From assembly GCA_900318835.1 (NCBI GenBank), contig ONLW01000014.1:1-59283 (forward strand): a stretch of 59,283 nt of DNA, written 5' to 3'. Below the pieces are notes generated by a model. It saw only the letters and a list, made by a program, of their open reading frames with translations, did not search any database and was not told the origin of the DNA. How positions within the stretch are numbered: position 1 is the first letter of the stretch; each line of letters begins with the position of its first letter. Source of the stretch: an uncultured Bacteroidales bacterium. GTDB lineage: Bacteria; Bacteroidota; Bacteroidia; Bacteroidales; P3. This document shows positions 101 through 51,754 of this stretch, one piece after another. The translations under genes and the position numbers were made by a program.

Positions 101-219
101 CTAAAAAATGCATATCTTTCTACTCAAAAAATGTATAGGTTTTTACCTAAAAAATATATACCTTTTTACCATAAAAATGTATAGGTTTTTATACTAAAAA
201 TATATACCTTTTCTCCTCC
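101..219. repeat. AT-rich iteron-like tandem repeats (about 24-bp period)
   Basis: About five units of 23-24 bp follow one another. Their cores alternate between AAAATGTATAGGTTTTTA and AAAATATATACCTTTTT, so adjacent units look like each other's partial inversions; the first unit (101-124) is the most diverged. The block precedes the start of the left-edge minus-strand gene. Such arrays are typical of operators or replication/partition iterons; nothing else here decides between these. Confidence 0.6.
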
Positions 220-1502: not shown

Positions 1503-2714
1503 CTATTTCTGCCAGCGCTTGAGCTGGGGGAAGTACTGGCGGAGTTGCTCGCGGTACTCGTCGGCGGTGAGGTGCTGGCCGGTGTTCTTGTTGAACTCGT
1601 CGACGTACTGGACGCAGAAGTCTATCATCTGCTCCATGGTGCAGTCGGCGGTGAAGTGGCCGTCGGCGAAGCAATACTTGCAGTAGTCGGGATTGTCGCT
1701 CACTACCTCGTCGCTGAGGGGCATGCCGCAGCTCTGGCAATAACGCTGCTTAGGGGCGCCGGGCTTGCGCTGGAGGACGGCATAGACCTTGGCCATGATG
1801 TCGGCGGCGCGAAGATGGTAGTTGGTGAGCATCTCGTCAGGGGTGCCGCTCTCGCCGAACTTGTCATCCACCGCCACATACTCCATGGGCGTGGGGCAGT
1901 GGAGGGCGAGGGTCTGGGCGATGCTGTCGCCGAGGCCGCCGTTGAAGAGGTGCTCCTCGCAGGTGACGACGGCGCCGGTCTTCTTGGCGCTGGCCACGAT
2001 GGCCTCCACGTCGAGCGGTTTGATGGTGTGGATGTTGATGACTTCGCAGCTGATGCCGACCTTCTCGAGCATCTCGGCGGCCTGCAGGGCTTCCCACACA
2101 AGGTGGCCGCAGGCGAAGAGGGTCACGTCGGTGCCCTCGCTCAGGAGCTGGGCCTTGCCGATTTCAAACTTCTCACCTTCGGGCAGGAAGCAGGGCATCT
2201 TGGAGCGGCCGAGGCGGAGATAGATGGGCCCGACGTGCTCGGCGGCTGCCAGTGTGGCGGCCTTGGCCTGGTTGAAGTCGGCGGGCACGAGCACGGTCAT
2301 GTTGGGCAGCACCTTCATCAGGGCGATGTCCTCCATCGTCTGGTGCGTGGCGCCGTCCTCGCCGAGCGAGATGCCGGCGTGCGAGCCGCAGATCTTGACG
2401 TTCTTGTTCGAGTAGCAGACCACCTGGCGGATCTGGTCGTAGACGCGACCGGTGACGAACTCGGCGAAGCCCCCGATGAAGGGCACCTTGCCGCAGAGGC
2501 TCAGGCCGGCGGCGATGCCGACCATGTTGGCCTCGGCGATGCCGCACTGGATGAAGCGCTCGGGGAACTCCTTGGCGAAGCCGTCCATCTTGACGCTGCC
2601 TTTCACGTCGGCGCTCAGGGCGACGACATTCTCATTCTTGCGGCCAGCCTCGACAAGGCCTTCGCCCATGCCGGCGCGCAACTCTTTGCTTGATTGTTTT
2701 TCGTAGTGGGTCAT
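1503..2714 (-). CDS. Transketolase C-terminal half fused to a zinc ribbon
   Basis: Residues about 1-315 match the C-terminal half of a split transketolase: a pyrimidine-binding domain (CGIAEANMVGIAAGLSLCGK, GISLGEDGATHQTMEDIALM) followed by the transketolase C domain (FACGHLVWEALQAAEML, CEEHLFNGGLGDSIA, VAVDDKFGESGTPDEML). The last 80 residues are unusual: a putative zinc ribbon with CQSCG (C326, C329) and YCKYC (C345, C348), then a helical tail. Split transketolases need a partner carrying the thiamine-diphosphate domain, and no such gene lies next to this one. The upstream neighbour is a four-helix-bundle gene, separated by TTAATGGG repeats. The role of the ribbon is unknown. Confidence 0.88.
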   Translation of the reverse strand: MTHYEKQSSKELRAGMGEGLVEAGRKNENVVALSADVKGSVKMDGFAKEFPERFIQCGIAEANMVGIAAGLSLCGKVPFIGGFAEFVTGRVYDQIRQVVCYSNKNVKICGSHAGISLGEDGATHQTMEDIALMKVLPNMTVLVPADFNQAKAATLAAAEHVGPIYLRLGRSKMPCFLPEGEKFEIGKAQLLSEGTDVTLFACGHLVWEALQAAEMLEKVGISCEVINIHTIKPLDVEAIVASAKKTGAVVTCEEHLFNGGLGDSIAQTLALHCPTPMEYVAVDDKFGESGTPDEMLTNYHLRAADIMAKVYAVLQRKPGAPKQRYCQSCGMPLSDEVVSDNPDYCKYCFADGHFTADCTMEQMIDFCVQYVDEFNKNTGQHLTADEYREQLRQYFPQLKRWQK

Positions 2715-2750
2715 TGTTATTGTTGTTTTTTGTTTGTTGTCTTTTTGGTG

Positions 2751-2880
2751 GGGTTAATGGGTTTGATGGGTCATGGGGTTAATGGGCTTAATGGGTTCAA
2801 TGGGCGGTATGATTATCGCTGCCCAAATTGCCCATTAGACCCATTAAACCCATTTTGCCCATTCTGCCCATTAAACCCAT
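2751..2880. repeat. TTAATGGG-type 9-nt tandem repeats, two opposed blocks
   Basis: From about 2751 to 2809 the plus strand repeats GGGTTAATGGGTTTGATGGG-like units with roughly 9-nt period. From about 2818 to 2880 the complementary CCCATTAAA type appears. The second block lies inside the 3' end of the four-helix-bundle gene and encodes its Asn-Gly-rich tail. The two blocks can pair into a long imperfect hairpin. The same repeat type recurs at 10430-10461 and 45317-45350. Confidence 0.8.
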
Positions 2881-3430
2881 GGCTATCTCTATATGCCTTC
2901 CTCGCCCTGTACATCTCCTCTTTTATCCCTCCGTTCTCGAGGAAGTTCTTCTTCTGCCATTCTATCAGCCCTTTTATCAGCACATCACACTGGTGTATCA
3001 GCGTGATGGCGATATTAGCTATGGTCTCGTCGGAGCGGTCTTTTATCTTCTCGCGGTACACCGCCGAGTCAAGGTGCCGTTTACAGAACTCGCGCGTCTG
3101 CACACAGCGCGGGTCGTCGTAAGGCCACTGTTCCAAGCCACGCACTCGCAGGTAGTCCTCATAATCGAGCAGCAGCTCGTGTAGCGAGGCGCGATTGACG
3201 TTGGTCAGGCGAATCTCCATCTCTTTTGAGGTTACCCCGTCGATATTACCCTCTGCCAGGTTCTGCTTGCCACTTCTCGCCGCCTGCACCATCTGGTCAA
3301 TGGTGCGGTCGCCTTTCTGCAGGAACTTATTGGCAAAATAATAGGTCACGTCATAGACGCACTCCGCCTTGCGGAACGCCTTCAACGTCCTGTAGTTGTT
3401 ATCCTGCCGTATAAAGTCCTTGTTGTCCAT
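2813..3430 (-). CDS. Four-helix-bundle (S23-like) suffix-domain protein
   Basis: The 205-residue protein matches the Bacteroidota S23/intervening-sequence-like four-helix-bundle family with its suffix domain. Recognisable features are FANKFLQKGDRTIDQMVQAA, SGKQNLAEGNIDG, ELLLDYEDYLRVRGLEQW and a C-terminal helix NIAITLIHQCDVLIKGLI. The natural C-terminus seems to be near KAYRDSHG. The following Gly-Asn-Gln-Phe tail is encoded by the 9-nt CCCATTAAA-type repeat and looks like a repeat expansion running into the gene. The family's biochemical role is unknown; relatives include the Avd accessory protein of diversity-generating retroelements, but no reverse transcriptase is present here. It starts 6 nt after the stop of the upstream membrane-protein gene. 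Confidence 0.8.
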   Translation of the reverse strand: MDNKDFIRQDNNYRTLKAFRKAECVYDVTYYFANKFLQKGDRTIDQMVQAARSGKQNLAEGNIDGVTSKEMEIRLTNVNRASLHELLLDYEDYLRVRGLEQWPYDDPRCVQTREFCKRHLDSAVYREKIKDRSDETIANIAITLIHQCDVLIKGLIEWQKKNFLENGGIKEEMYRARKAYRDSHGFNGQNGQNGFNGSNGQFGQR

Positions 3431-3436
3431 AGTCAG

Positions 3437-4042
3437 TTACTTGATTAACGACATGAGCGAATCATTTTTGTCTTGGCTATACCGATGTCCATCACTCAGG
3501 CGATAGAAGATGGTATCGTAGCAAATACTGTCGTTCTCGGAAAATAAGGTATAAGTGATTTCTTCTTTAATCAAGTCCAGCGTGTCAAACATTGTGTATT
3601 TCATTTCCTCGCGGCAATCTCTCCAGCCCTCGCATCGCAAACGGTACATCTTCCTGTCTATAAACCCCTCACGTCGGTAGAGCACAAGGTCATTAGGGTC
3701 AATCCAACCCTTGGACTCAGCGTATACCACATAGTCTTTATTGCTCCAAGCCCTATGGTCGGAGAACATTGTCGAGACGAAAAGCATCACCCCACAGACA
3801 TAAAGAACGATGGCACAGCCAATCCATGCCGCAACCTTTATCAACCAATGCTTGCCTCTGCCAATGTGGATAGTCAGCATGACAGCATAGATTGGGGTGA
3901 GCACAAACGCAATCCCGAAGACCCACCCATCAAGGTGATATGCCATTCTAACATCCTCACCCAAGAATAATGAAGAAATCGCTACCGCCCACAGCACTAA
4001 TGCTGTGATGCCTATAATTCTGCGTATGGTTTTTGCTTTCAT
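3437..4042 (-). CDS. Membrane protein of unknown function
   Basis: The 201-residue protein has three hydrophobic segments at about residues 8-28, 41-60 and 69-92. A soluble C-terminal half of about 105 residues follows, rich in aromatic and acidic residues and carrying three Cys. I recognise no family. It sits 3 nt downstream of the vWA protein gene and 6 nt upstream of the four-helix-bundle gene, so it is very likely translated from the same mRNA. Confidence 0.65.
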   Translation of the reverse strand: MKAKTIRRIIGITALVLWAVAISSLFLGEDVRMAYHLDGWVFGIAFVLTPIYAVMLTIHIGRGKHWLIKVAAWIGCAIVLYVCGVMLFVSTMFSDHRAWSNKDYVVYAESKGWIDPNDLVLYRREGFIDRKMYRLRCEGWRDCREEMKYTMFDTLDLIKEEITYTLFSENDSICYDTIFYRLSDGHRYSQDKNDSLMSLIK

Positions 4043-4045
4043 AAG

Positions 4046-5392
4046 TTAAAACTGTATCTTTGTGGTTTGCGAGCTTTCTATAACAAAGCGTTTGGTCTGG
4101 ACTTTGTCGTATTTGGTGGCAGTCTGGGGGTGGAGGACGACTTCGTATTGGCCGGGCTGGAGCAGGAGGCGCTCGCCGGCGGTGCTGGGGTTGAGGTCGG
4201 TGGCGAACTCCACTTGACCGTCACGCAACCTAAAGATGGCACCGGTGGTGATACCTTTAGGTTTCGACAGCACCAGCATGCCGGGCATGGGCACCGAAAG
4301 CTCGGTGGCGGCGTTGCCGCGCACCTCGACGCCGCGCAGGGTGGTGACGGGCAGGGTCTGCACCTCCACGTCATAGCGTCCGGCGAGATATTGGCCTGTC
4401 TCGCCGACCTCCTGTGCAGCCACACGCTCGCCGCTGCCGGCACGGCGCACTATCACGTCGACGGCGGTCTGTTGCCACTGCGGACGCTGGCCGCTGTACT
4501 GCACCTTGAGGGTGCCTTCGCTGACGGTGATGTCGACGCTGTTCGGACGGTCGATGCTGAACTGCATGGCCTCGCGGCGCAGCGGCGGATGGGTGAAGAC
4601 TGCCATGTCGTAGGTCACCAGCGGGTCCATCAGCAACGTGTCGGGCTTCAGCTTGCTGTCCACGCTGTAGATGGTGCTGTGGCGTATGACGCCGGTGCGG
4701 TGGTCGTAGAAGGCCACGGGGTGCTCGGTCTCGTAGAGCACGCCCGTAGCGTCGACCATGTTAAGAACCACCTTGGCCTTGTGTCCGCTGAGGCGGAAGA
4801 TGTCGTAGAGTGTCTTGGAGAACTCCTCCTCGTTGACCACGGGGAAGACGCTGCCGGCGCATGAAGCATGACTGAAAGCCCTATTGCCGATGCCGAGCAC
4901 GAAGGTCTGCACCACCACGCCGCTGAGCTGCACCTGACGTGCCACGTCGCATATCTCGGCGTCGCAGTCGTCCATGCCGTCGGTGATGATGAGTATCAGG
5001 TTGCGGCTTGAGCCAGTGGCGGGAAAGTCAGACAAAGCGTCGGTCAGTGCCGCCGCAGCGGTACATCCACCCTGCGGCACGAGGGTTTTGATTTTGCTCT
5101 GCAGACGGTAAATATTGTCGCTCCCGAAGGGCACTTCGAGGCGTGTGCCGAACTGTTCTTTGTTGAGGTGGCCGAAGACTCGCAGCGCCACGTCGACATC
5201 ATGCTGCTTGGAGATGGAGTCCAAAAAGGATAGCAGCACCTGCTGCGTCACCTTGATCTTGGAGTTGCTCTGCCAGTGGTCCCACATGGAATTGGAGCAG
5301 TCCATGATGAGCAGCAGACGGGTCTTCTCCAGCTGTTGCGCCTGCACGACGCCCGCCAACATTAAAAGCAATAGTATGAATAGTCTGCGCAT
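4046..5392 (-). CDS. Exported von Willebrand factor A domain protein
   Basis: A 448-residue protein with a signal peptide (MRRLFILLLLMLAGVVQAQ). A vWA domain follows at about residues 24-200: the MIDAS motif DCSNSMW, the central strand of the fold (NLILIITDGMDDCDAE) and a conserved Thr/Gly region (QGGCTAAAAL). The C-terminal 230 residues look like beta-rich Ig/FN3-like modules, with no transmembrane anchor. Such proteins bind ligands or partners through a metal ion; the partner is unknown. A -7 box lies on the minus strand at 5416-5423. It is the first gene of the run leading into the membrane and four-helix-bundle genes. Confidence 0.8.
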   Translation of the reverse strand: MRRLFILLLLMLAGVVQAQQLEKTRLLLIMDCSNSMWDHWQSNSKIKVTQQVLLSFLDSISKQHDVDVALRVFGHLNKEQFGTRLEVPFGSDNIYRLQSKIKTLVPQGGCTAAAALTDALSDFPATGSSRNLILIITDGMDDCDAEICDVARQVQLSGVVVQTFVLGIGNRAFSHASCAGSVFPVVNEEEFSKTLYDIFRLSGHKAKVVLNMVDATGVLYETEHPVAFYDHRTGVIRHSTIYSVDSKLKPDTLLMDPLVTYDMAVFTHPPLRREAMQFSIDRPNSVDITVSEGTLKVQYSGQRPQWQQTAVDVIVRRAGSGERVAAQEVGETGQYLAGRYDVEVQTLPVTTLRGVEVRGNAATELSVPMPGMLVLSKPKGITTGAIFRLRDGQVEFATDLNPSTAGERLLLQPGQYEVVLHPQTATKYDKVQTKRFVIESSQTTKIQF

Positions 5393-5415
5393 TTTATATT
5401 TAATAATTCAAAATG

Positions 5416-5423
5416 CAAAGATA
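5416..5423 (-). promoter_or_regulatory. -7 box (TATCTTTG) for the vWA gene
   Basis: The reverse complement of 5416-5423 is TATCTTTG, the Bacteroidota -7 consensus TAnnTTTG, 24 nt ahead of the vWA start. It is divergent from the promoter at 5494. Confidence 0.65.
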
Positions 5424-5493
5424 CGAAGAAATTCGGAATGCGGGAAACTAAAATCAAAAAATATTTTTTTATCGACAATTCAAAAAAAAGTCG

Positions 5494-5501
5494 TATCTTT
5501 G
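5494..5501 (+). promoter_or_regulatory. -7 box (TATCTTTG) for the C1 peptidase gene
   Basis: TATCTTTG matches TAnnTTTG and lies 48 nt ahead of the chosen ATG at 5550, preceded by an A/T-rich tract at the -33 position. Together with the minus-strand box at 5416 it makes a divergent promoter region. Confidence 0.7.
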
Positions 5502-5549
5502 CACCGCATTTTATGCGTAAATTTAGTAACAAAATTAACAATAAAACAG

Positions 5550-6809
5550 ATGAAGAAAGCATTTTTATTCCTTGGCGCCATGGCCATCTGCACCAGCGCC
5601 GTCTTCGCACAGGAAGAGAAAAAAGAAGAGGAAGAGGGCTACAAGTTTGACACCGTCAAAGTGTTGCCCATCACCTCCGTCAAGAACCAGAACAACGCCG
5701 GCACCTGCTGGAGCTACAGCGGTCTCGCCTTCCTCGAGAGCGAGCTGCTCCGCATGGGCAAAGGCGAGTACGACCTGAGCGAAATGTATGTCATCGAGAA
5801 GACCTACAACGACCGCGCCGTGGCCGCTGTCCGCACCCATGGTGACGTCTCCTTCTCCCAAGGCGGCGCCTTCAACGACGTGATTTTCTGCCTCCGCAAC
5901 TACGGCATGGTGCCCGACGAGGTGATGCCCGCCGGCAAGATGTATGGCGACACTCTCAGCAACCACACCGAACTCAGCGCCCTCACCGATGTCATGGTCG
6001 AGGCCATTGCCAAAGGCAAGCTGAAAAAACTCCAGATGAGCCCCGACGGCCAGCCCCTCTGGCTGAAAGCCATCGAAGCCGTCCACGCCACCTACCTCGG
6101 CCCCATCCCCGAGAAATTCAACTATAAAGGCAAGGAGTACACCCCGAAGAGCTTCGCCGAGAGCCTCGGTCTGAACCCCGACGACTATGTCTCCCTCACC
6201 AGCTTCAACCATCATCCCTTCTACGACCAGTTCGTCATCGAAATCCAGGACAACTGGCGCTGGGCCAAGAGCTACAACCTCCCCATTGATGAGTTCATGG
6301 AGGTCTTCGACTATGCCATCGACAACGGCTACACCGTTGCCTGGGGCAGCGACGTCAGCGAGACTGGCTTCCGCTACAGTCGTAAGGGCTTCGCCGTCCT
6401 GCCCGCCACCGAGGCTCCCAAGAGCGGTGTCGGCAGCGACCAGGCCAAATGGAGCGGCATGAAAGCCGGTGACATCGCCGATGAGGCCGCCAAGCACCCC
6501 ACTCCCCAGCGCTGGGTGACCCAGGAAGAGCGCCAACAGGGCTACGACAACTGGGAGACCACCGACGACCACGGCATGCTTATCTACGGCAAGGCCAAAG
6601 ACCAGATGGGCAACGAGTACTACATGGTGAAGAACAGCTGGGGCCAGTACAACGGCGAGTTCGGCGGCAACTTCTTCTGCAGCAAGGCTTTTGTCCGCTA
6701 CAAAACCATCAACATCGTGGTGCATAAAGACGCCATCCCAGCCGCCATCAAGGCCAAACTCGGCATCGAGGACAAAAACGCCAATACCAAAAAAGGCAAA
6801 AAGAAATAA
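5550..6809 (+). CDS. Secreted C1-family cysteine peptidase (aminopeptidase C / bleomycin-hydrolase-like)
   Basis: From the ATG at 5550 the product is 419 residues with a signal peptide (MKKAFLFLGAMAICTSAVFA) and a short acidic pro-segment. The papain-like triad is visible: Cys53 in NAGTCWSYSGLAFLES, His341 in DDHGMLIYG and Asn362 in VKNSWGQYNGEFGG. The long insert between Cys and His is typical of the PepC/bleomycin-hydrolase branch, which trims peptides from the N-terminus. A signal peptide is unlike cytosolic PepC but common in Bacteroidota homologues, suggesting a periplasmic role. The tail is Lys-rich. An upstream in-frame extension lacks coding logic and overlaps the vWA gene. An intrinsic terminator follows. 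Confidence 0.88.
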   Translation: MKKAFLFLGAMAICTSAVFAQEEKKEEEEGYKFDTVKVLPITSVKNQNNAGTCWSYSGLAFLESELLRMGKGEYDLSEMYVIEKTYNDRAVAAVRTHGDVSFSQGGAFNDVIFCLRNYGMVPDEVMPAGKMYGDTLSNHTELSALTDVMVEAIAKGKLKKLQMSPDGQPLWLKAIEAVHATYLGPIPEKFNYKGKEYTPKSFAESLGLNPDDYVSLTSFNHHPFYDQFVIEIQDNWRWAKSYNLPIDEFMEVFDYAIDNGYTVAWGSDVSETGFRYSRKGFAVLPATEAPKSGVGSDQAKWSGMKAGDIADEAAKHPTPQRWVTQEERQQGYDNWETTDDHGMLIYGKAKDQMGNEYYMVKNSWGQYNGEFGGNFFCSKAFVRYKTINIVVHKDAIPAAIKAKLGIEDKNANTKKGKKK

Positions 6810-6865: not shown

Positions 6866-6940
6866 GCCCGTTTTTTAACAAAACCGGGGCAAAAACAGCC
6901 TAAAAAACACCTTCTACACAATAATCACAAAATCAATACC

Positions 6941-7030
6941 ATCTACCTACGAACGCCTTACCAACTCCTACCATGGTAGGAGTTGATAGGGTGTTGGTAG
7001 GGAGTTGACAGGGTGATAATACGTGGTTAG
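6941..7030. repeat. Palindromic GTTGGTAGG element, copy 1
   Basis: A perfect 24-bp palindrome with core CTCCTACCATGGTAGGAG spans 6962-6985. It is flanked on the right by GTTGGTAGG-like 10-11-nt units (GATAGGGTGTTGGTAGGG) and on the left by their complements (CTTACCAACTC). It fills the middle of the 6866-7132 gap; apart from this element the gap holds only A/T-rich sequence. Related copies occur at about 15767, 29038, 37117 and 51672. Confidence 0.85.
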
Positions 7031-7132: not shown

Positions 7133-8293
7133 ATGAAAAAGATTTTAACCATACTATTGCTGGCCACCCTCACCCTTGGTGCAGGGGCACAGGTGCCCGA
7201 CGGCTGCGAACTGCCGACGTTGCCCGAACTCAGCGCCAAGGAGCGGCGCGACATGAAAGAGACTCTCGACGCATGGCTGAAAGACTGGCAGAAAATCGGT
7301 GCCTCAGGATTCAATCCCGCACTAAAATACAATGACATAAACGATAAAAGGATTTCCATCGACCTCACCTACATCGTTGCTGACAGTACAAAAGCCTTCC
7401 TCGATTCGAACTCCGAATATCTGCGTGCGGCATCGCTGTTCGACGCCACAAACCGCCTGCGCGATTTATTCGAAATGGTGGCCAATCTGGGCTACGACGT
7501 GATGGCATCTGTTGTACTACGCACTATCACAGGCAGAAGCACCTCGGTACACATCACGAATTTCGACAACGCCACTCTGCGCTACATTATGAGTCTGAAG
7601 AGTTCCTTCTCGGTATATGTCTACTCCGACGTCGTGGAAGTATTGAAAAAAATACCTTTCGGGTTTGAAGACAGCGTGATATGTACTGGCATAAGCTACT
7701 GCAACCACCTGTGGACCATGACGCTGCACTCGTCAATAGCATTCGATCCCGAAGACGATTCCTATATTGTTTGGGCTGTCCACACTAGCGAAATCGTGTC
7801 CGATGCAGATTTTATGCGATTTGTCGGCATGGACAGCACTACAGCCCGCTTCATCATTGTTCAGGATGGAGCAAAAGACACATTCACATTCGATTACACC
7901 CCAGCACAGCTGCTTGGCGAAGAGCCTGCGCTCGACATCAACTGGCTTGGCAACTACCTGGCCCAGGGCATCGACCGCACCTTTCCCATGCCAATGCAGT
8001 CAAGCACCGGCACAATGGAGCATTGCTCCTACGACCCAACGCTGCAGGTGCTGGTCATAGAATGTCTGATGGACGAAATCGACGTGGTGGGCAACGTGGG
8101 CCGGGAGGAGCAAGTGAAACTGCCCATCCTGGAGGCCATGCTTGCCGCCTCAGAGGGCAACGATTTCATTCAGGCACTGGCAGAAGTGGGCCTGGGATTG
8201 GAATACCGCATCCAAAGCCGCACCACGCGCCGTCCCCTGACCATCACCTTCACTCCCGACGAACTGCGAGTGTTTATTCTTGAAAGACAATAG
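7133..8293 (+). CDS. Exported protein of unknown function
   Basis: A 386-residue protein with a signal peptide (MKKILTILLLATLTLGAGAQ). The mature part mixes helix and strand and has no motif I recognise. It contains several amphipathic segments and ends in a basic region (RIQSRTTRRPLTITFTPDEL). A TTATCTTA sequence about 20 nt upstream is only a weak promoter candidate. The radical SAM gene starts 3 nt after its stop, so the two are probably co-transcribed. Confidence 0.65.
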   Translation: MKKILTILLLATLTLGAGAQVPDGCELPTLPELSAKERRDMKETLDAWLKDWQKIGASGFNPALKYNDINDKRISIDLTYIVADSTKAFLDSNSEYLRAASLFDATNRLRDLFEMVANLGYDVMASVVLRTITGRSTSVHITNFDNATLRYIMSLKSSFSVYVYSDVVEVLKKIPFGFEDSVICTGISYCNHLWTMTLHSSIAFDPEDDSYIVWAVHTSEIVSDADFMRFVGMDSTTARFIIVQDGAKDTFTFDYTPAQLLGEEPALDINWLGNYLAQGIDRTFPMPMQSSTGTMEHCSYDPTLQVLVIECLMDEIDVVGNVGREEQVKLPILEAMLAASEGNDFIQALAEVGLGLEYRIQSRTTRRPLTITFTPDELRVFILERQ

Positions 8294-9946: not shown

Positions 9947-10429
9947 TTATCGGGCGATATCCTCGTCGTCGCTGTCGTTGTGTTTGCTGCGGCGGAGGCG
10001 CTTGATGTAGAGCTCGATGCTCTTGAGTCCCCAATTGATAAGTATGACCACGGCGACAGCGATAAGTGCTTCGCGCCACATGCCATAGCCACAGAGGCAC
10101 CCCACGGCGGCGCTGCACCAGATGGTGGCGGCGGAGGAGAGACCGTGGATGGTGAGACCGTTCTTCATGATGACGCCGGCGCCGAGGAAGCCGATGCCCG
10201 TCACCACCTGCGAGAGGACGCGGAGATTATCGTTGTTCACCGGACCGCCCGCCAACTTGGCACTCATGATGACGCTCTCGCTTATCAATATAAATATACA
10301 GGCCCCCACAGCCACCAGCGAGTTGGTGGTGAGGCCGGCCTGGCGCTGCTTGAGCTCGCGCTGTGTGCCGATAATAATACCGGCGATGAGGGCGCAAGCG
10401 AGGCGGAAGATGAAGACTTCGATGGGCAT
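9947..10429 (-). CDS. MgtC/SapB family membrane protein
   Basis: A 160-residue membrane protein with four to five hydrophobic segments and the MgtC/SapB signature: RLACALIAGIIIGTQRELK, AGLTTNSLVAVGACIF, VVTGIGFLGAGVIMKNG, SSAATIWCSAAVG. Family members are linked to magnesium limitation and acid survival, acting by modulating membrane ATPase or transport; the substrate is unsettled. It ends in an acidic/basic cytosolic tail. It is the last gene of the minus-strand run from 15567. Its start codon is preceded directly by CCCATTAAC-type repeats instead of a normal leader. Confidence 0.85.
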   Translation of the reverse strand: MPIEVFIFRLACALIAGIIIGTQRELKQRQAGLTTNSLVAVGACIFILISESVIMSAKLAGGPVNNDNLRVLSQVVTGIGFLGAGVIMKNGLTIHGLSSAATIWCSAAVGCLCGYGMWREALIAVAVVILINWGLKSIELYIKRLRRSKHNDSDDEDIAR

Positions 10430-10461
10430 GATGGGGTAAATGGGGTTAATGGGTTAACTGG
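10430..10461. repeat. TTAATGGG-type repeat at the rsmI/mgtC junction
   Basis: ATGGGGTAAATGGGG followed by TTAATGGGTTAACTGGG runs from immediately ahead of the mgtC start codon (minus strand) into the last codons of rsmI. It is the same repeat type as at 2751-2880 and 45317-45350, again exactly at a gene junction. Confidence 0.75.
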
Positions 10462-11128
10462 GCTTGCCTGCAAGGATAACGACAATCTCGCCTTTCACTT
10501 GCCCCTGTGCGAAGTGCGCCAGCACTTCGGCGAGGATGCCACGGGCGGTCTCGGCGTGGAGCTTGCTGATTTCGCGGCTCACGGAGACCTGACGGTCTTC
10601 ACCTACTACGGCCGCTAATTCGGTTAGCAGCTTCACCAACCGGTACGGACTCTCGTAGATGATCATCGTGCGTTCCTCGTCGGCAAGGGCTTGTATGGCC
10701 GTCTGGCGGCCTTTCTTATGCGGCAAGAAGCCGAGGAAGACAAAACGATCGCACGGCAGACCGCTATCGATAAGTGCCGGCACAAAGGCCGTGGCACCCG
10801 GCAGGCATTCCACCTCAATACCATCCTTCACTGCCTCACGGACAAGTAGGAAGCCCGGATCGCTGATGCCGGGAGTGCCGGCGTCGGTGACCACGGCAAT
10901 GGTAGTGCCGCTCTTCAGTCGCTCGACAAGTCCCGCCACCGTCTGGTGCTCGTTGAAGATGTGGTAGCTCTGCAACGGGGTTTCGATGCCGTAATGCTGC
11001 AGGAGCACACGGGAAGTGCGGGTGTCCTCGGCGAGGATGAGGTCGACAGACTTGAGAACCTCGACGCCACGGAATGTCATGTCGCCGAGGTTCCCAACGG
11101 GTGTCGGTACTAAAAACAATTTCGACAT
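10454..11128 (-). CDS. rsmI: 16S rRNA (cytidine-1402-2'-O)-methyltransferase
   Basis: A 224-residue member of the tetrapyrrole-methylase fold, matching RsmI: LFLVPTPVGNLGDMTFRG at the N-terminus, LILAEDTRTSRVLLQHYGI, the SAM-site loop VTDAGTPGISDPGF, CLPGATAFVPALIDSGLP and FLGFLPHKKGRQ. It methylates the ribose of C1402 in 16S rRNA. The length is somewhat shorter than E. coli RsmI because the C-terminal segment is missing, as is common in Bacteroidota. Its ATG overlaps the yebC stop by one base (TAATG), implying translational coupling. Confidence 0.92.
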   Translation of the reverse strand: MSKLFLVPTPVGNLGDMTFRGVEVLKSVDLILAEDTRTSRVLLQHYGIETPLQSYHIFNEHQTVAGLVERLKSGTTIAVVTDAGTPGISDPGFLLVREAVKDGIEVECLPGATAFVPALIDSGLPCDRFVFLGFLPHKKGRQTAIQALADEERTMIIYESPYRLVKLLTELAAVVGEDRQVSVSREISKLHAETARGILAEVLAHFAQGQVKGEIVVILAGKPS

Positions 11129-14176: not shown

Positions 14177-14953
14177 TTATTGTTTTTCTTCGTTCATTTT
14201 TCTCAATTCACACTCGGCAGCCTCGAGGTCGGCAGGGGTGTCGATACCGATGTTGGCCGCTGCCGTCTCGCGCACAGCGATGGTATAGCCAGCTTCAAGC
14301 CAACGCAATTGTTCCAGTTTCTCGCTGGTTTCCAAACCGCTCTGTGGCATGACACAGACCTTGGCCAGCACCTCCGGGCGGAAGGCATAGATGCCCACAT
14401 GCTTGAAATACTCGCCCTCGTCGAGCCACTTCCCGGCCTCCACGTCGCGACGGAACGGTATAGCCTGACGGCTGAAATAGAGAGCGTTGTCAGTAGCGGC
14501 ACACACCACCTTCACGTTGTTGGGAGAAAACAGTTCTTCCTTCGAGCGTATACGGGTCTTAAGGGTGGCAATGGAGGTCTGCGGATTTTCAAAACAACTG
14601 GCGAGCAACTGCAGCTGTGCGGCCGTGACGAAAGGCTCGTCGCCCTGCAGGTTGATCACTACGTCGAAGCCACAGCCCTGACGTTCAAGTGCCGCAACCA
14701 CTTCTCCACAGCGGTCGGTACCACTGCGATGGCTGTCGGAGGTCATCATCACGCTGCCCTCACCGAACGTCTCTTTCACATGAGAGAAGATGCGCTCGTC
14801 GTCGGTAGCCACCACGGCGGCAGCGATGCCGGGCGTGTGGGCGGCCACAGTATAGGCATAGTCGATGATGGGCTTGCCTCCCAGCAGGGCCAGCGGCTTG
14901 CCGGGGAAACGCGTCGAAGCGTAACGTGCAGGAATAACGGCCAGAACCTTCAT
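14177..14953 (-). CDS. kdsB: 3-deoxy-manno-octulosonate cytidylyltransferase (CMP-KDO synthetase)
   Basis: A 258-residue nucleotidyltransferase with the family start [51 protein letters not shown] and the sugar-binding region [13 protein letters not shown]. It activates KDO with CTP for lipopolysaccharide inner-core synthesis in the cytoplasm. Its start overlaps the deoxynucleoside kinase stop by 4 nt (ATGA), so expression is coupled. Confidence 0.95.
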
Positions 14954-15567
14954 TGCTGGAAAAGACTATTGAATTCAGCGTCAATCTTGTTGATAATCGA
15001 ACCCAGGTCCTCGCGGTTCTCCACGAAGTCGAGCTCCTCGGTATCCACCACAAGAATCTTGCCCTCGTAAGTCGAGGCCCAGTTCTCGTAGCGGTTATTA
15101 AGGTTGGTGAGGTAGTCAAGGCGGATGCTGTTCTCATACTCGCGGCCACGTTTCTGGATGTGGCGGATAAGTGTCGGCACATCGCCGCGGACATAGATGA
15201 GCAGGTCGGGCTTGGGCAGCAACGAATAGGTCAACTCGAAGAGTTTGGTGTAGGTGGTCAGGTCACGCGTCGTCATCAGTCCCATGCTCTGGAGGTTGGG
15301 GGCGAAGACATAGGCGTCGTCATAGAGCGAGCGATCGCGTATAAAACTCTCGCCCGAAGCCTGCAGCTCAGCCAGCTGCTTGGCATTGGCATACAATGAG
15401 TGGACCATCATGTTGAACGACCAGCGCCGCATGTCCTCATAGAAACTGTTGAGGTAAGGATTCTCTTCAGACGGACCATGGACGGCCTTGTAGCCGTAGT
15501 GCTTCGACAGAAGCTTGGTCAGTTCCGTCTTTCCTGCTCCGATATTTCCCGAGATTGCTATCTGCAT
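14950..15567 (-). CDS. Deoxynucleoside kinase
   Basis: A 205-residue P-loop kinase of the dAdo/dGuo/dCyd kinase family: Walker A GNIGAGKTELTKLL, PYLNSFYEDMRRWSFN, the DRS motif in FIRDRSLYDDAYVFA, and LLIYVRGDVPTLIRHIQKRG with lid-type arginines. It phosphorylates deoxynucleosides in salvage. It is the first gene of the minus-strand operon and has a -7 box at 15650-15657. Confidence 0.9.
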   Translation of the reverse strand: MQIAISGNIGAGKTELTKLLSKHYGYKAVHGPSEENPYLNSFYEDMRRWSFNMMVHSLYANAKQLAELQASGESFIRDRSLYDDAYVFAPNLQSMGLMTTRDLTTYTKLFELTYSLLPKPDLLIYVRGDVPTLIRHIQKRGREYENSIRLDYLTNLNNRYENWASTYEGKILVVDTEELDFVENREDLGSIINKIDAEFNSLFQQ

Positions 15568-15711: not shown

Positions 15712-15830
15712 CACCCTCCTACCATCTACCTACCATCTACCTACCATCTACCTACCATCCCCCTATCAACTCCTACCATGGTAGGAGTTGGTTAGGTGTT
15801 GGTAAGGAGTTAATAGGTAGTTATCAGCAA
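15712..15830. repeat. Palindromic GTTGGTAGG element, copy 2, with CTACCTACCAT repeats
   Basis: The perfect palindrome with core CTCCTACCATGGTAGGAG spans 15767-15790. To its left is an array with 11-nt period, CTACCTACCAT, repeated three to four times (15717-15760). To its right the units GTTAGGTGTTGGTAAGG and GTTAATAGGTAG form the opposite arm. It lies between divergent promoters, so it need not be a terminator. Confidence 0.85.
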
Positions 15831-16020: not shown

Positions 16021-16866
16021 ATGACGAACATTGACAATCTGGACACCCTCATCAAAATGGCCCTGCGCGAGGACATCGGCGACGGCGACCACTCCACTCT
16101 CGCCTGCATTCCCCCAACTGCCACCGGCACAGCCAAAATGGTGGCCAAAGCAGACGGCATCCTCTGCGGTGCCGAAGTGGGCGAACGGGTCTTCATGCTC
16201 GTCGACAGCAATTTGAAAGTCAACCTATTGAAGCACGATGGTAATACCATCGTGAAGGGCGACGTGGTGATGACCGTCGAGGGGCCTTCGGGTTCCATCC
16301 TCACCGCCGAGCGCACCGCCCTCAACTTCATGCAGCGACTCTCGGGCATTGCCACTGAGACCCACCGCATGGTACAGATGCTCAACGGATTGCACACCCA
16401 GCTCCTTGACACCCGCAAGACGACGCCCAATATGCGCCTGCTGGAGAAGTACGCCGTCAAATGCGGCGGCGGCACCAACCACCGCATCGGCCTCTACGAC
16501 ATGGTGATGCTCAAGGACAACCATATCGACTTCGTCGGCGGCATCGAAGCCGCCATCGACCGCACTCGCGACTACCTGAAAGCCAAAGGTAAAGACCTAA
16601 GGATTGAGATTGAGGTGCGCAACCTCGACGAGTTGCAGCGCGTGCTCGACCATGGCGGCGTGGACCGTATCATGCTCGATAACTTCGACACTGCAACACT
16701 CCGCGAGGCCGTGAAACGCATTGACGGACAATATGAAACCGAGGCTTCGGGCGGCATCACCGAGAAGACGCTGCGCGAATATGCCGAGACGGGCGTCGAC
16801 TTCATCTCCGTGGGTGCTCTCACCCACCATATCAAGAGTTTAGACCTCTCACTTGTAAAGAAATGA
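16021..16866 (+). CDS. nadC: Nicotinate-nucleotide pyrophosphorylase (quinolinate phosphoribosyltransferase)
   Basis: A 281-residue enzyme with the type II PRTase motifs LREDIGDGDHSTLA, ERTALNFMQRLSGIAT, LDTRKTTPNMRLLEKYAVKCGGG, HRIGLYDMVMLKDNHI, EIEVRNLDEL and the C-terminal EASGGITEKTLREYA, GVDFISVGALTH. It converts quinolinate and PRPP to nicotinate mononucleotide in NAD synthesis. nadA and nadB are not in the window. Its stop overlaps the start of the YihY gene (ATGA). Confidence 0.95.
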   Translation: MTNIDNLDTLIKMALREDIGDGDHSTLACIPPTATGTAKMVAKADGILCGAEVGERVFMLVDSNLKVNLLKHDGNTIVKGDVVMTVEGPSGSILTAERTALNFMQRLSGIATETHRMVQMLNGLHTQLLDTRKTTPNMRLLEKYAVKCGGGTNHRIGLYDMVMLKDNHIDFVGGIEAAIDRTRDYLKAKGKDLRIEIEVRNLDELQRVLDHGGVDRIMLDNFDTATLREAVKRIDGQYETEASGGITEKTLREYAETGVDFISVGALTHHIKSLDLSLVKK

Positions 16867-26055: not shown

Positions 26056-27622
26056 GGTATTCGGTCTCTGTATTCACATTCCATATCAAAGATTTGTCCT
26101 CAATCTTACCGCTCTTGATGGCATCCACCGTCTCGAAAGCCGTCAGCATCGAGTGGTCCATATTGTTGTAGCGGTGCTGACCATTGCGACCCAGACAGAA
26201 GAGGTTGGGAATGGTGTTCAGGAAGTCGCGCACGGTATCCAGTTCATAGTAGCTGCCGTAATAGGCTGGATAGGCTTTCTGAATCTTCACGTGGCAGGCA
26301 TCCAGCACATCCTTGGCATCGATGATGTCAATCTTCGCCAATTCAGCCTTTGCCATCTCGATGAAGGCGTCGGCAGGCATATTCCACAATTCGTCACCTT
26401 CAGTGCAGAAGTATTCGAGGCCAATCCACATGGTGTTCTCATAATCCTTCACCAGATAGGGCGACCAGTTGTTGAATACCTGCAGGCGGCCGATGCGCAC
26501 ATCGCGTTCTTGGATGTATATCCAGGTGTCGGGCACACGGTCGGCATAGGTGCGCAGCTTGGTCTCGTTGCGAATCTTCATCTTGTTCACCAGCAGACCC
26601 ACGGTAATGAAATCACGATAGGGCAGCTCGCCAGCGATACGGCGCACATTGTCAGGGACATTGACGCCCTTGATTGCCGGCACAAGGTCCTTGATGGGCA
26701 TGGTAGAGAGGAAATAGTCGCATGCCACCTTCTCCTCCGAGCCGTCGGCATGTTTCAGCGTCACCGAGGTAACGTTCCCATTCTCCACTTCGATACCCAC
26801 GACCGAGGTTTCCATTCTCACCTCGCCACCCTTGGCCTGGACATCCATCACCACAGTCTCCCACAACTGGCCGGGACCATATTTCGGATAGATGAACTGC
26901 TCAATCAGAGAAGTCTCCACCTCTTTGCCGTCCTTCTTGCCAAAGGCCTTGCGGAACATATCCTTCAGCACGGCACGTATCGAGAGGCCCTTTACACGCT
27001 GGCTGCCCCAGTCAGCACCCAGTTTCGACGGATGCACTCCCCACACCTTGGCGGTGTAGTCCTCAAAGAACATCTCGTAGAGCGGACGTCCGAAACGGTT
27101 GATATAGAAATTCTCCAGCGAATCCTCGGGCAGCTTGTGGATGCAGGCCCACAGGTAGCCGAAGCCTGCACGCATCATGCGTACAAAACCCATATTGAGG
27201 AATGTCTCCTTCTTCATCGAGATGGGATAGTCGAAGAACTTGCGCAGGAAGAAGATGCGGCTCACACGGCGACGCACCAACATCGTGCGGTCCTCGTGCT
27301 CGGGGTCGGGACCCTCTTTGGCGAATTCCTTCTCCGTCTCGTTCAGCAAGATATCGTCTTTCGACGGCTTGGCCTGCATGGGCATAATCTCCTGCCACCA
27401 ATCCATCACCTTGTCGCTCTTCGAGAAGAAACGATGACCACCGATATCCATGCGGTTGCCATGATATTCCACCGTCTGCGAGATACCACCAATCCGGGCG
27501 GTCTTTTCGCACACTATAGGCTTCACATCCGTCTGGCGGAGCAACTCGTATGCTGCCGTCAAACCCGCGGGACCACCGCCGGCAATGACAGCAATTTTCT
27601 GTCTATCTGTATTCTGTGTCAT
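26042..27622 (-). CDS. FAD-dependent amine-oxidase-type oxidoreductase
   Basis: A 526-residue flavoprotein with the dinucleotide-binding start [19 protein letters not shown], ending its first strand in [21 protein letters not shown] follows, as in UDP-galactopyranose-mutase and protoporphyrinogen-oxidase relatives, and the C-terminal FAD-contact segment is [21 protein letters not shown]. The central region has [19 protein letters not shown]. The placement with a glycosyltransferase, GtrA and divergent rmlB points to a nucleotide- or lipid-linked sugar substrate, but this is inference. The start ATG at 27622 is served by a promoter at 27658-27688. Confidence 0.8.
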
Positions 27623-27657
27623 ATATATATTATTATTCCTTTACTATATACTCGCTG

Positions 27658-27688
27658 CAAAAATACGAAAAACAAACCACATGGCAAA
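27658..27688 (-). promoter_or_regulatory. Promoter for the FAD oxidoreductase-GT39-gtrA operon
   Basis: On the minus strand a -33 TTTG (27685-27688) and a -7 TATTTTTG (27658-27665) are 19 nt apart, an ideal Bacteroidota arrangement. A matching plus-strand promoter for rmlB is not obvious in the 27623-27759 gap. Confidence 0.75.
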
Positions 27689-27759
27689 ATAAAAAACAAA
27701 AAAACACAATAATTGGCCGACATCCACGTTACACAAACAAAATCAAACAATCAAGCAAT

Positions 27760-28890
27760 ATGAACATCATCATCACCGGAGGTGCCGGATTCATCGGAAA
27801 CCACGTAGTACGTCTGTTCGTCAACAAATACCCGCAATATAAAATCATCAATCTCGACAAGCTAACCTATGCAGGCAACCTTGCCAACCTCAAGGACATA
27901 GAGGAAAAGCCAAACTACAAGTTCGCCAAAATGGACATCTGCGATTTCGAGGGTGTCTATAAGTTGATGCAGGACGAGCATGTCGACGGCATCATCCATT
28001 TGGCCGCCGAGAGTCATGTGGACCGCAGCATCAAGGATCCCTTCACATTCGCACAGACCAACGTGATGGGCACCCTCAGCATGCTTCAGGCCGCCAAGCT
28101 CTACTGGGAGAGCCTGCCTGGAAAATTTGAGGGCAAACGCTTCTACCACATCTCGACCGACGAGGTCTACGGCGCCCTGGAGATGACCCATCCCGAAGGC
28201 ATTAAGCCACCCTTCACCACCAAAGCCTCCAGCGGTGAGCACCATCAGGCTTATGGAGAGAAATTCTTCACAGAAGACCTCAAGTACCAGCCGCATAGCC
28301 CCTATAGCGCCGCCAAAGCCTCGAGCGACCACTTCGTCCGTGCCTTCCACGACACCTATGGCCTGCCCACCATCGTCACCAACTGCTCCAACAACTATGG
28401 TCCCTACCAGTTCCCCGAAAAGCTCATCCCACTCTTTATCAACAATATCCGCCATCGCAAACCCCTGCCTGTCTACGGCAAGGGCGAGAATGTGCGAGAC
28501 TGGCTCTATGTCGAAGATCACGCCCGCGCCATCGACCTCATCTTCCACAAAGGTAAGATCGCCGAAACTTATAACATCGGAGGCTTCAACGAGTGGAAGA
28601 ACATCGACATCATCAAGGTGGTTATCAACACCGTAGACCGCCTGCTGGGCCGTCCCGAGGGGCAAGACATGGACCTCATCACCTACGTCACCGACCGTGC
28701 CGGCCACGACATGCGCTACGCCATCGACAGCAGCAAACTGCAGCGCGAACTCGGATGGGAACCCAGCCTCCAGTTCGAGGAAGGCATCGAGAAGACCGTC
28801 CGCTGGTACCTCGACAATCAGGAGTGGATGGATAACGTCACCTCAGGCGACTATCTGAAGTACTACGAGGACATGTACGCCGGTAGATAA
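27760..28890 (+). CDS. rmlB: dTDP-glucose 4,6-dehydratase
   Basis: A 376-residue short-chain dehydrogenase from the ATG at 27760: NAD site ITGGAGFIGNHVVRLF, YKIINLDKLTYAGNLANL, HLAAESHVDRSI, the catalytic region YHISTDEVYG and SPYSAAKASSDHFVRAF (Tyr-x-x-x-Lys), and TNCSNNYGPYQFPEKLIPL. It makes dTDP-4-keto-6-deoxyglucose for rhamnose or related sugars. It is slightly longer than enterobacterial RmlB, as usual in Bacteroidota. rmlA, rmlC and rmlD are not in the window. A reading frame reaching further upstream lacks homology. Confidence 0.93.
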   Translation: MNIIITGGAGFIGNHVVRLFVNKYPQYKIINLDKLTYAGNLANLKDIEEKPNYKFAKMDICDFEGVYKLMQDEHVDGIIHLAAESHVDRSIKDPFTFAQTNVMGTLSMLQAAKLYWESLPGKFEGKRFYHISTDEVYGALEMTHPEGIKPPFTTKASSGEHHQAYGEKFFTEDLKYQPHSPYSAAKASSDHFVRAFHDTYGLPTIVTNCSNNYGPYQFPEKLIPLFINNIRHRKPLPVYGKGENVRDWLYVEDHARAIDLIFHKGKIAETYNIGGFNEWKNIDIIKVVINTVDRLLGRPEGQDMDLITYVTDRAGHDMRYAIDSSKLQRELGWEPSLQFEEGIEKTVRWYLDNQEWMDNVTSGDYLKYYEDMYAGR

Positions 28891-28998: not shown

Positions 28999-29085
28999 TC
29001 GCACAATCAACCTATTAACTACCTATCAACACCTAATCAACTCCTACCACGGTAGGAGTTGATTAGGTGTTGATAGGGGCTTCGT
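28999..29085. repeat. Palindromic GTTGGTAGG element, copy 3
   Basis: The core CTCCTACCACGGTAGGAG (centre changed from ATG to ACG) lies in 29038-29061. The left arm is built from CCTATTAACTACC and CCTATCAACACC units, the right arm from GATTAGGTGTTGATAGG. It sits between the rmlB terminator and the blaI-like gene. Confidence 0.82.
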
Positions 29086-29170
29086 TGGTAGAATAACGCT
29101 ACCATGTGACAACTTTTTTTTCACACAAATACAATAAACAGACATTCCCTTCGTTCTTTAACTAGAATTT

Positions 29171-29196
29171 TAATTATAAAACAATACTTATAATTA
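29171..29196. promoter_or_regulatory. Inverted repeat overlapping the blaI-like start (candidate operator)
   Basis: TAATTATAA (29171-29179) and TTATAATTA (29188-29196) form a perfect 9-bp dyad with 8-nt spacer. The second half ends on the A of the BlaI ATG. BlaI/MecI repressors bind such dyads, so autoregulation is likely but unproven. Confidence 0.55.
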
Positions 29197-36973: not shown

Positions 36974-36995
36974 ATATTGTATTATTTTAAAAATG

Positions 36996-37003
36996 CAAAA
37001 ATA
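36996..37003 (-). promoter_or_regulatory. -7 box (TATTTTTG) for guaA
   Basis: The reverse complement reads TATTTTTG about 23 nt ahead of the guaA start. The rest of the 37007-37286 gap holds repeat copy 4 and A/T-rich DNA. Confidence 0.6.
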
Positions 37004-37096
37004 CACATTCCCTCCGACATGACAAAATTTTTTTCTTCCCCCACCTCTTTTTCAACCCTAAATACTCCTTTTTCCAGCACCCCCAAACTCCTACTT

Positions 37097-37150
37097 TGTA
37101 CCTACCAACTCCTTACCAACTCCTACCACAGTAGGTTTTGATAGGTCTTT
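37097..37150. repeat. Palindromic GTTGGTAGG element, copy 4 (degenerate)
   Basis: CCTACCAACTCCTTACC is followed by AACTCCTACCACAGTAGG and TTTTGATAGG. The centre and right arm have decayed relative to the other copies. Confidence 0.7.
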
Positions 37151-37286
37151 CATTAAGTTAAAATTCGTCATTTTAACATTCATTAAGAAAGTTTATATGC
37201 CACAAACGCAATGTTTAAAAATCATGGTCTTTTGGGAATAAAAAATAATATTTTAAATTATTTCATTATATGTCATTTTTTTTATG

Positions 37287-37294
37287 TACCTTTG
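37287..37294 (+). promoter_or_regulatory. -7 box (TACCTTTG) almost touching the bamD start
   Basis: TACCTTTG ends only 6 nt before the ATG at 37301. With the usual start-site distance the mRNA would begin at or next to the ATG. Confidence 0.6.
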
Positions 37295-37300
37295 CAAGTT

Positions 37301-45317: not shown

Positions 45318-45350
45318 GGGGTTAATGGGTTGAATGGGTTGAATGGGTTA
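45317..45350. repeat. TTAATGGG-type repeat at the kinase/thioesterase junction
   Basis: GGGTTAATGGGTTGAATGGG followed by TTGAATGGGTTA fills the space between the histidine kinase stop and the thioesterase ATG. It is the same 9-nt family as at 2751 and 10430. Confidence 0.8.
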
Positions 45351-51558: not shown

Positions 51559-51654
51559 AAAACAATCTCAGAAAAGATACGAAAAATCCTACATGGGAGA
51601 AACAGAAACGAAACACCGAAAACCATAATTGTTAACAAATCTTAAACACAAACA

Positions 51655-51725
51655 CCCTACCACAAGCCTATCAACACCTACCATGGTAGGAGTTGGTAGG
51701 GAGTTGGTAAGGAGATGATAAGTGG
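51655..51725. repeat. Palindromic GTTGGTAGG element, copy 5
   Basis: The core CACCTACCATGGTAGGAG lies in 51672-51695. The right arm is GTTGGTAGGGAGTTGGTAAG; the left arm is CCCTACCACAAGCCTATCAA. It lies downstream of the Fe-alcohol dehydrogenase and upstream of the M16 gene, both on the minus strand. Confidence 0.82.
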
Positions 51726-51754
51726 TTCATAATACTCTGGTAGTAGGAGTTATG

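What the first reader, a model, noticed from the sequence alone, without database searches (positions are those of the whole stretch)
6941..7030. A palindromic element recurs in five intergenic gaps
A near-identical core CTCCTACCATGGTAGGAG with arms built of GTTGGTAGG-type 10-11-nt units lies at about 6962, 15767, 29038, 37117 (degenerate) and 51672. Contexts differ: after tandem genes, and between divergent promoters. It is thus not simply a terminator. The arms vary in length and unit order while the core stays fixed, suggesting a REP/MITE-like mobile or a protein-binding element.
Basis: seen in the sequence. Interest (0 to 1): 0.75.

Follow-up and report, generated by a model that had tools for sequence, protein, structure and literature searches.

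The report
Evenly spaced 11-bp repeat chromosome sites
In a group of uncultured gut Bacteroidales, short DNA arrays built of 11-letter units sit between genes about every 10 kilobases along the chromosome, and their wording changes between species while several of their places stay the same, which suggests a previously unrecognised kind of chromosome-organising site.

Summary
In detail: five copies in the window, 148 at up to 3 mismatches in the 2.34-Mb genome (reversed-pattern control 3). In a 34% sample none of 66 copies lies in a called gene, in tandem, divergent and convergent gaps alike. They are regularly spaced: 58 intervals, mean 11.9 kb, CV 0.46, none under 4.5 kb; none of 6,000 random intergenic placements was as regular. 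The invariant is an array of 11-nt units, mostly two inverted arms, rather than the core. Other species of the genus have this architecture in other words, often in the same gap (4 of 6 versus 0 of 14 gaps, P 0.003). G009 and the differently worded G016 are also regular (CV 0.37, 0.34); G012 and G022, at a loose threshold, are not (CV 0.82, 0.65), and some species show few arrays. REP/RAYT and hairpin readings fit poorly; mobility is not excluded. Best reading: architecture sites that nucleate a phased nucleoprotein or wrapped structure every ~10 kb. The reading factor is unknown.

The parts
6937..7027 (.). Element 1: inverted 11-nt-unit arms around the exact palindrome at 6965-6982; gap between a C1-type peptidase gene (5550-6809 +) and an ORF without Pfam match (7133-8293 +), tandem
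   Evidence: an element follows the same peptidase gene in G009 and the site is present in UBA2939 locus L069
15711..15833 (.). Element 2: long left arm of CCTACCATCTA-type units around the exact palindrome at 15770-15787; divergent gap between a deoxynucleoside kinase gene (14950-15567 -) and a QRPTase (nadC) gene (16021-16866 +)
   Evidence: the gap upstream of nadC holds an element in G009 and 11-nt arrays of other wording in G002, G015, G012, G022, G019, G004
29003..29093 (.). Element 3: palindrome with 1 mismatch at 29041-29058; tandem gap between an NAD-dependent epimerase/GDP-mannose dehydratase-like gene (27616-28890 +) and a Penicillinase_R gene (29196-29549 +)
   Evidence: same gap occupied in G009 and G035, not in G002, G015, G007
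37090..37151 (.). Element 4: degenerate copy (profile hit 37120); divergent gap between a GMP synthase (guaA) gene (35447-37006 -) and a YfiO/BamD-like gene (37211-38104 +)
   Evidence: same gap occupied in G009, G007 and, with other words, G002 and G012; upstream of guaA in G024
51651..51735 (.). Element 5: palindrome with 1 mismatch at 51675-51692; subtype with an AT-rich left flank shared with other copies; tandem gap between an M16 peptidase gene (50083-51381 -) and an Fe-ADH gene (51870-53036 -)
   Evidence: same gap occupied in G009

Best explanation
The five elements belong to a chromosome-wide set of cis-acting architectural sites, one about every 10-12 kb, between genes. Each is an array of roughly 4-10 units of 11 bp, mostly two oppositely oriented arms meeting at an 18-22-bp palindrome. 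11 bp is about one turn of negatively supercoiled DNA, so all units face the same side. The likely mechanism (inferred): a dimeric factor nucleates on the palindrome and adds one subunit per turn along each arm, or the phased array wraps or curves, giving a fixed node that loops, anchors or topologically insulates ~10-kb chromosome segments. Shown here: copy number, intergenic location, regular spacing in three genomes, 11-nt unit phase, partly shared orthologous positions, species-specific wording, and avoidance between arrays of different wording in the own genome. Inferred: the binding factor, wrapping, the loop or domain function, and the cause of the change of wording (co-evolution with the reading protein plus unit slippage).
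For: 148 sites at up to 3 mismatches, control 3. In 794 kb, 0 of 66 profile hits lie in a called gene; the 61 with called neighbours are 29 tandem, 22 divergent, 10 convergent, against 80/44/21 for gaps of at least 200 nt. Spacing CV 0.46, 0 of 58 intervals under 4.5 kb; null CV means 0.76-0.88, 0 of 3 x 2000 draws as low. Regular spacing also in G009 (11 arrays, CV 0.37, P 0.0024) and in G016, whose arrays are differently worded (10 arrays, CV 0.34, P 0.0018). Arrays of other wording in the own genome lie far from the main type: all 11 candidates, mean distance 8.1 kb against 4.5 kb for free gaps, P 0.003; 10 intergenic period-9 arrays do not (mean 3.5 kb). Same gap, other words: 4 of 6 against 0 of 14, Fisher P 0.003. 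Strict blind detector over four genomes: 48 hits at lag 11, 0 at lags 10 and 12-16, but 1, 9, 5 and 3 at lags 6-9. Core retained where flanks no longer align, for example L072, L080, L081, L095. [quoted passage not shown] R1 ParR needs at least two 11-bp repeats (PMC9426499, passage).
Against: No binding protein was found; the ribbon-helix-helix family PF01402, a natural candidate, has no match in 27 of 28 genus genomes searched. Spacing is not regular everywhere: at a loose threshold G012 has CV 0.82 (22 candidate arrays, shortest interval 2.3 kb), G002 0.76 (4 arrays), G022 0.65 (8 arrays, shortest 266 bp), and there the counts at other lags are not zero. Arrays are sparse in some species: G026 2 in 100 kb, G035 6 in 184 kb; 22 of 30 nadC loci show none upstream that I recognised, though many of these have other upstream genes, and at guaA the blind detector found one clear array in 30 loci. 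In the own genome one candidate array lies 319 bp and another 1.9 kb from a main-type copy. Several wordings in one genome are hard to square with one strictly sequence-specific protein. G015 and G004 arrays are direct repeats. In the G009 stretch the first 38.8 kb hold no array, and the test starts after them. No replichore polarity was seen (adjacent copies 21 same, 22 opposite).
Confidence: 0.47

Rival explanations
1. A mobile repeat family (REP/BIME or MITE) that spread by copying; regular spacing comes from target immunity and intergenic location from purifying selection.
For: Near-identical copies in G012 (7 in 200 kb, alike for about 100 bp) and repeated identical cores in G015; species-specific sequences; subtypes with shared flanks in the own genome; 50 of 61 genomes without the own core at up to 2 mismatches.
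Against: Y1_Tnp has no match in 7 of 23 genus genomes, among them G009 and G016. 21 of 31 alignable loci are occupied in the own genome too; no clean empty site among 8 read, though only one was alignable through. Spacing holds between differently worded arrays, and the same gap is used by different words, which sequence-based immunity does not predict.
Confidence: 0.16
2. DNA uptake or self-recognition sequences: a competence receptor or repair nuclease prefers DNA carrying the species' word; transformation spreads and homogenises it.
For: Species dialects exist for uptake sequences in Neisseriaceae (PMC3630211, passages). Even spacing of uptake sequences has been proposed, and disputed as a sign of compaction, in print (PMC1939737, passages). 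Many copies of one word in few species fit.
Against: The Neisseriaceae dialects are about 10-mers in thousands of copies (2,245 to 5,918 in the passages seen) and some lie in coding sequence; here about 100 bp, about 200 copies by extrapolation from 66 in 34%, none in called genes. Several wordings share one genome and one spacing rule. No uptake gene was tested.
Confidence: 0.12
3. Protein-free supercoil-pinning sites: the 11-bp phase itself gives intrinsic curvature that fixes plectoneme tips; words are free to drift as long as the phase is kept.
For: Phase conserved while words change; curved DNA of about 75 bp can pin plectonemes (PMC6301789, passages); elements are more bent than composition-shuffled copies of themselves in the own genome in both wedge models (93% and 92% below the shuffled median).
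Against: Any word repeated at 11 bp is expected to bend more than shuffled DNA, so one search is not specific; it is mixed elsewhere (G022 50% in one model, G016 57% in the other) and its parameters were recalled. Within the species many positions are strongly conserved, more than phase alone needs.
Confidence: 0.13
4. Operators of a global transcription factor or promoter-associated regulatory elements.
For: Strongly oriented copies tend to lie upstream of the gene on their AT-rich side (27 of 34).
Against: 10 of 61 copies are in convergent gaps; regular spacing and avoidance between neighbours are not expected of a regulon. The orientation score includes AT-rich flanks, so the bias may be circular.
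Confidence: 0.06
5. RNA hairpins or bidirectional intrinsic terminators.
For: Inverted arms; very good palindromes in G012.
Against: In the own genome the two arms of a copy match each other less than arms of different copies (at positions 21-31, 32-42 and 43-53, 98.0%, 99.9% and 98.7% of random re-pairings match as well or better), so pairing is not maintained; 22 of 61 copies lie between divergent genes. T-runs were not scanned.
Confidence: 0.03

Closest known systems
REP/BIME elements and RAYTs
   Same: More than 100 intergenic palindromic copies, sequence limited to few species
   Different: Transposase family missing from genomes with many copies; 11-nt unit arrays; regular spacing; some positions kept with changed words
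parC centromeres bound by ParR (plasmid R1)
   Same: Arrays of 11-bp repeats; repeat sequences differ between systems (PMC9426499, passages)
   Different: Plasmid sites of direct repeats (recalled: one site per plasmid); here about 200 chromosomal sites, mostly inverted arms; RHH_1 matched in 1 of 28 genus genomes
DNA uptake sequences (DUS/USS) and their dialects
   Same: Dialects per species, chromosome-wide, even spacing discussed in print
   Different: Oligomers of about 10 nt in thousands of copies, some in coding sequence
matS/parS/KOPS-type chromosome maintenance sites (recalled)
   Same: Chromosome-wide or regional cis sites for DNA-organising proteins
   Different: Short single motifs; KOPS polar; none known to me as 11-bp arrays re-worded between close species
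11-bp genome periodicity / curved-DNA structural codes
   Same: Same period, linked to negative supercoiling (PMC4132750, abstract in listing)
   Different: A statistical bias over whole genomes; here discrete arrays at regular places

Membership tests
REP/RAYT (REPtron) | Cognate Y1_Tnp transposase in genomes with many copies, next to the repeat | tested here: not met
   G009 (113 copies) and G016 have no match; own full-length copy at C23:53309-53650, nearest element C23:51061; the own partial copy on C32 was not examined
REP/RAYT (REPtron) | Short intergenic palindrome in more than 100 copies | tested here: met
   128-148 copies; 0 of 66 sampled in called genes
MITE | Target-site duplication and clean empty sites in relatives | tested here: inconclusive
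   No clean empty site in 8 of 10 unmatched loci read, but only one alignable through, with a decayed remnant; no formal duplication test
Intrinsic terminator | Maintained hairpin | tested here: not met
   Arms of one copy anti-correlated
Intrinsic terminator | Placed at gene 3' ends with a T-run | tested here: not met
   22 of 61 copies lie between divergent genes; T-runs not scanned
ParMRC parC | Tandem repeats of about 11 bp | tested here: met
ParMRC parC | Ribbon-helix-helix adaptor (PF01402) | tested here: not met
   1 of 28 genus genomes, the own genome without; other RHH families and ParM not tested
DNA uptake sequence | Bound by a competence receptor, enhances uptake | not testable with these tools
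   needs uptake assays
Chromosome-architecture site | Non-random, regular distribution | tested here: met
   own genome, G009, G016; not so in G012 and G022 at a loose threshold
Chromosome-architecture site | Occupied by a DNA-organising protein; affects contacts or topology | not testable with these tools
   no ChIP or Hi-C data held
KOPS-type polar signal | Orientation follows replichore | tested here: not met
   adjacent copies 21 same, 22 opposite orientation; contigs not placed on replichores

The most novel reading that the evidence does not exclude
A new class of bacterial chromosome site that is recognised by its 11-bp phase and array form rather than by a fixed sequence: an evenly spaced (~10 kb) set of nodes whose wording is rewritten genome-wide between close species while positions persist, a bacterial counterpart of fast-evolving centromere or PRDM9-type DNA-protein pairs.
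Probability: 0.35. Interest if true: 0.92.

Novelty: categorically new. Interest (0 to 1): 0.78.

Why it matters
How bacterial chromosomes are divided into ~10-kb topological domains, and whether DNA sequence fixes the borders, is a long-standing question. A set of discrete, evenly spaced, partly position-conserved sites would make it directly testable. The turnover of wording with retained places would also be a strong natural case of DNA-protein co-evolution or of phase-based rather than sequence-based recognition.

Tried and rejected
RAYT/Y1 transposase link: not supported. Hairpin/cruciform constraint: arms anti-correlated, rejected for the own genome. Replichore polarity: none seen. Curvature: above shuffled but not specific; wedge parameters recalled. 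RHH_1 as reader: 1 weak match in 28 genus genomes (G027). SMC and ParB: no link to the arrays; ParB over the cut-off in 57 of 61, SMC_prok_B in 0 of 61, other families of the order included. Viral collection: 0 exact matches. Literature: eight full-text searches listed no description of such arrays that I recognised from titles and abstract starts; in the REP survey PMC12306157 I saw passages only, with Flavobacterium and Thermoflavifilum as the Bacteroidota named there. Only open-licence papers are held.

Weak points of my own controls. Gene calls come from a small codon-score caller written here, not from an annotation; six of the 61 gaps are over 1.2 kb and probably hide missed genes. The 34% sample was taken from seven contigs already known to hold exact copies, plus the window. 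The profile null is one Markov sequence. The hand-picked test dropped 2 of 11 candidate arrays; one search repeats it with all 11 and the result holds (P 0.003 and 0.010). The strict detector sees only 28 places in the own sample, where the profile sees 66. At the looser threshold counts at other lags are not small: own genome 72 at lag 11 against 32 at 10, 19 at 9 and 14 at 14; G012 22 against 11, 10 and 18 at 9, 12 and 14; in G035, G015 and G002 lag 9 or 14 equals or exceeds lag 11. In one search the lag-10 control was also positive for same-word genomes (3 of 8 against 0 of 24, P 0.011), not for other-word ones.

Full report
What was claimed and what is there. Exact or near-exact cores are at 6965, 15770, 29041 and 51675, against 0 in shuffles, and a degenerate one is at 37120. 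In the own genome, held as 43 contigs of 2.34 Mb, the core occurs 148 times at up to 3 mismatches and 128 times at up to 2; the reversed control pattern occurs 3 and 0 times. In 60 other genomes of the order it occurs (up to 2 mismatches) 113 times in G009, 18-19 times in G002, G007 and G035, 1-2 times in six others, and not in the remaining 50. The exact core was found in 73 stretches of the named-genome collection, 71 of them from uncultured Bacteroidales or Bacteroidetes assemblies (several titled rumen or reticulum), one from Sinanaerobacter and one from a Fibrobacter assembly, and in no viral contig.

Sample and profile. A symmetric 84-bp profile built from 61 sites found 66 places scoring at least 25; one Markov sequence of equal length reached at most -23. 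None of the 66 lies in a called gene. For the 61 with a called gene on both sides the contexts are 29 tandem, 22 divergent, 10 convergent, close to all gaps of at least 200 nt (80, 44, 21). The gene calls are my own and miss some genes. So the site is tied to being between genes, not to promoters or ends.

Spacing. The 58 intervals average 11.9 kb with CV 0.46; the shortest is 4.5 kb, the longest 32 kb. Drawing the same number of intergenic gaps at random per contig gave mean CVs of 0.88, 0.83 and 0.76 for gaps of at least 100, 200 and 300 nt, with 23-30% of intervals under 4.5 kb; none of 2,000 draws in each case was as regular as observed.

The 11-nt array. In the arms the self-match is 0.52 at lag 11 and 0.44 at lag 22. 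When the region upstream of nadC was read in relatives (30 loci fetched, of 39 genomes with a match, of 41 searched), at least 8 including the own held arrays of 11-nt units there, 6 of the 8 with inverted arms, in quite different words: G012 TACGGTAGTAT, G022 TTCTTCAGTAG, G019 GTTGTTTACCG, G002 TCCGTATCAAG, G015 GATGCGTATAT, G004 ACCTACCAGAC. The other 22 showed none that I recognised; many have other genes upstream. Upstream of guaA the blind detector found one clear array in 30 loci (G024); it does not see the own degenerate copy. The strict detector (palindrome plus self-match at lag k) over G000, G009, G012 and G022 gave 48 hits at k = 11, 0 at 10 and 12-16, and 1, 9, 5, 3 at 6, 7, 8, 9. 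Twenty stretches, 273 kb, from 20 other families of the order gave 0 at k = 11, and 2, 2 and 1 at 8, 9 and 10. Not every species has arrays densely: G026 2 in 100 kb, G035 6 in 184 kb.

Words of other species. Across 61 genomes of the order, the G012 word (up to 1 mismatch) occurs only in G012 (90 forward, 89 reverse hits, several per element); the G022 word in G022 (95, 95) with fewer in G008 (11, 15) and G016 (6, 3); the G015 word (up to 3 mismatches) only in G015 (24, 15). All reversed controls are 0.

Spacing in other genomes. G009 (the own word) has CV 0.37 over 11 arrays in a 160-kb stretch whose first 38.8 kb hold none and are outside the test. G016, with different words, has mean 10.3 kb and CV 0.34 over 10 arrays in 100 kb. 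The chance of such low CVs by random intergenic placement was 0.0024 and 0.0018. G007 gives 0.50 over 7 arrays and G015 0.48 over 5, without a test. Against this, at the same loose threshold G012 gives 0.82 over 22 candidates, G002 0.76 over 4 and G022 0.65 over 8, so the rule is not shown there. In the own genome 11 further candidate arrays of other wording appear. Including all 11, their mean distance to a main-type copy is 8.1 kb against 4.5 kb for free gaps (P 0.003), and 2 of 11 are nearer than 4 kb against 56% of free gaps (P 0.010); 10 intergenic period-9 arrays show no such avoidance (mean 3.5 kb, 6 nearer than 4 kb). The two exceptions lie 319 bp and 1.9 kb from a main copy.

Same places. 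In syntenic windows, gaps with an element in the own window are occupied in same-word genomes (6 of 8, against 3 of 24 gaps without one; P 0.002) and in other-word genomes (4 of 6 against 0 of 14; P 0.003); the lag-10 control was positive for the first set (3 of 8 against 0 of 24, P 0.011) and empty for the second. Of 73 named loci, 31 align to the sample; 21 of these have an own element within 400 bp of the projected place (16 distinct own elements), and in several the core is kept while the flanks no longer align. Of the 10 unmatched I read 8: none shows a clean insertion; only L049 could be aligned through, and there the own genome holds a decayed element.

Symmetry. The arms are not kept complementary: arms of one copy resemble each other less than arms of different copies from position 21 outward, and copies can be oriented with a margin of 40 bits against 17-28 in re-paired controls. 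This speaks against an RNA hairpin or cruciform as the selected form. Neighbouring copies show no common orientation (21 same, 22 opposite).

Interpretation. Regular spacing, restriction to gaps of every orientation, avoidance across wordings and retention of place with changed words point to a chromosome-level role where what matters is an 11-bp-phased array every ~10 kb. An 11-bp period is commonly related to negatively supercoiled DNA (PMC4132750, abstract in search listing). Repeats of 11 bp are bound by ParR of plasmid R1 (PMC9426499, passage), and curved stretches can pin plectonemes (PMC6301789, passages). Which of a protein filament, a wrap or bare curvature acts here is open; RHH_1 was not found in the own genome and the curvature signal is not specific. 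Uptake-sequence dialects are the best known parallel for species words (PMC3630211 and PMC1939737, passages), but size, copy number and intergenic restriction differ. Novelty is called categorically new because REP/RAYT, terminator and parC each failed a tested feature, MITE stayed inconclusive, and the eight literature searches listed nothing alike that I recognised; a subscription-only description cannot be excluded.

Noticed in passing
window 2738-2884, 10412-10471, 45306-45356: 9-nt arrays of AATGGGTTT type, the first with an inverted CCCATTAAA arm; intergenic period-9 arrays in the sample do not follow the spacing rule of the 11-nt arrays.
   Followed up: partly
window 35331-35361, 39022-39055, 46634-46662: 7-nt arrays AAGGTGA and CTGAAAC.
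   Followed up: no
window 101-215: A 23/46-nt tandem repeat of AAAAAATGTATAGGTTTTTAC type near the contig end.
   Followed up: no
L026, L031, L032, L052, L083, L092: An element just after a gene end whose translation by eye looks like the C-terminus of MiaA (recalled, not searched), shared by several named assemblies with similar flanks.
   Followed up: no
own genome, C22 and C23, for example C23 125720 and 139471: Subtypes of the element share flanks up to 75 bp out, some nearly identical, hinting at copying or shared function within subtypes.
   Followed up: partly
61 genomes of the order: No genome reaches the SMC_prok_B cut-off (10 of 14 control genomes do), while ParB does in 57 of 61; this may be a limit of the search for long coiled-coil proteins.
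   Followed up: no
G012:C16 38936 and 91664: Hybrid arrays mixing several unit words of the species in one element, possible intermediates of re-wording.
   Followed up: no
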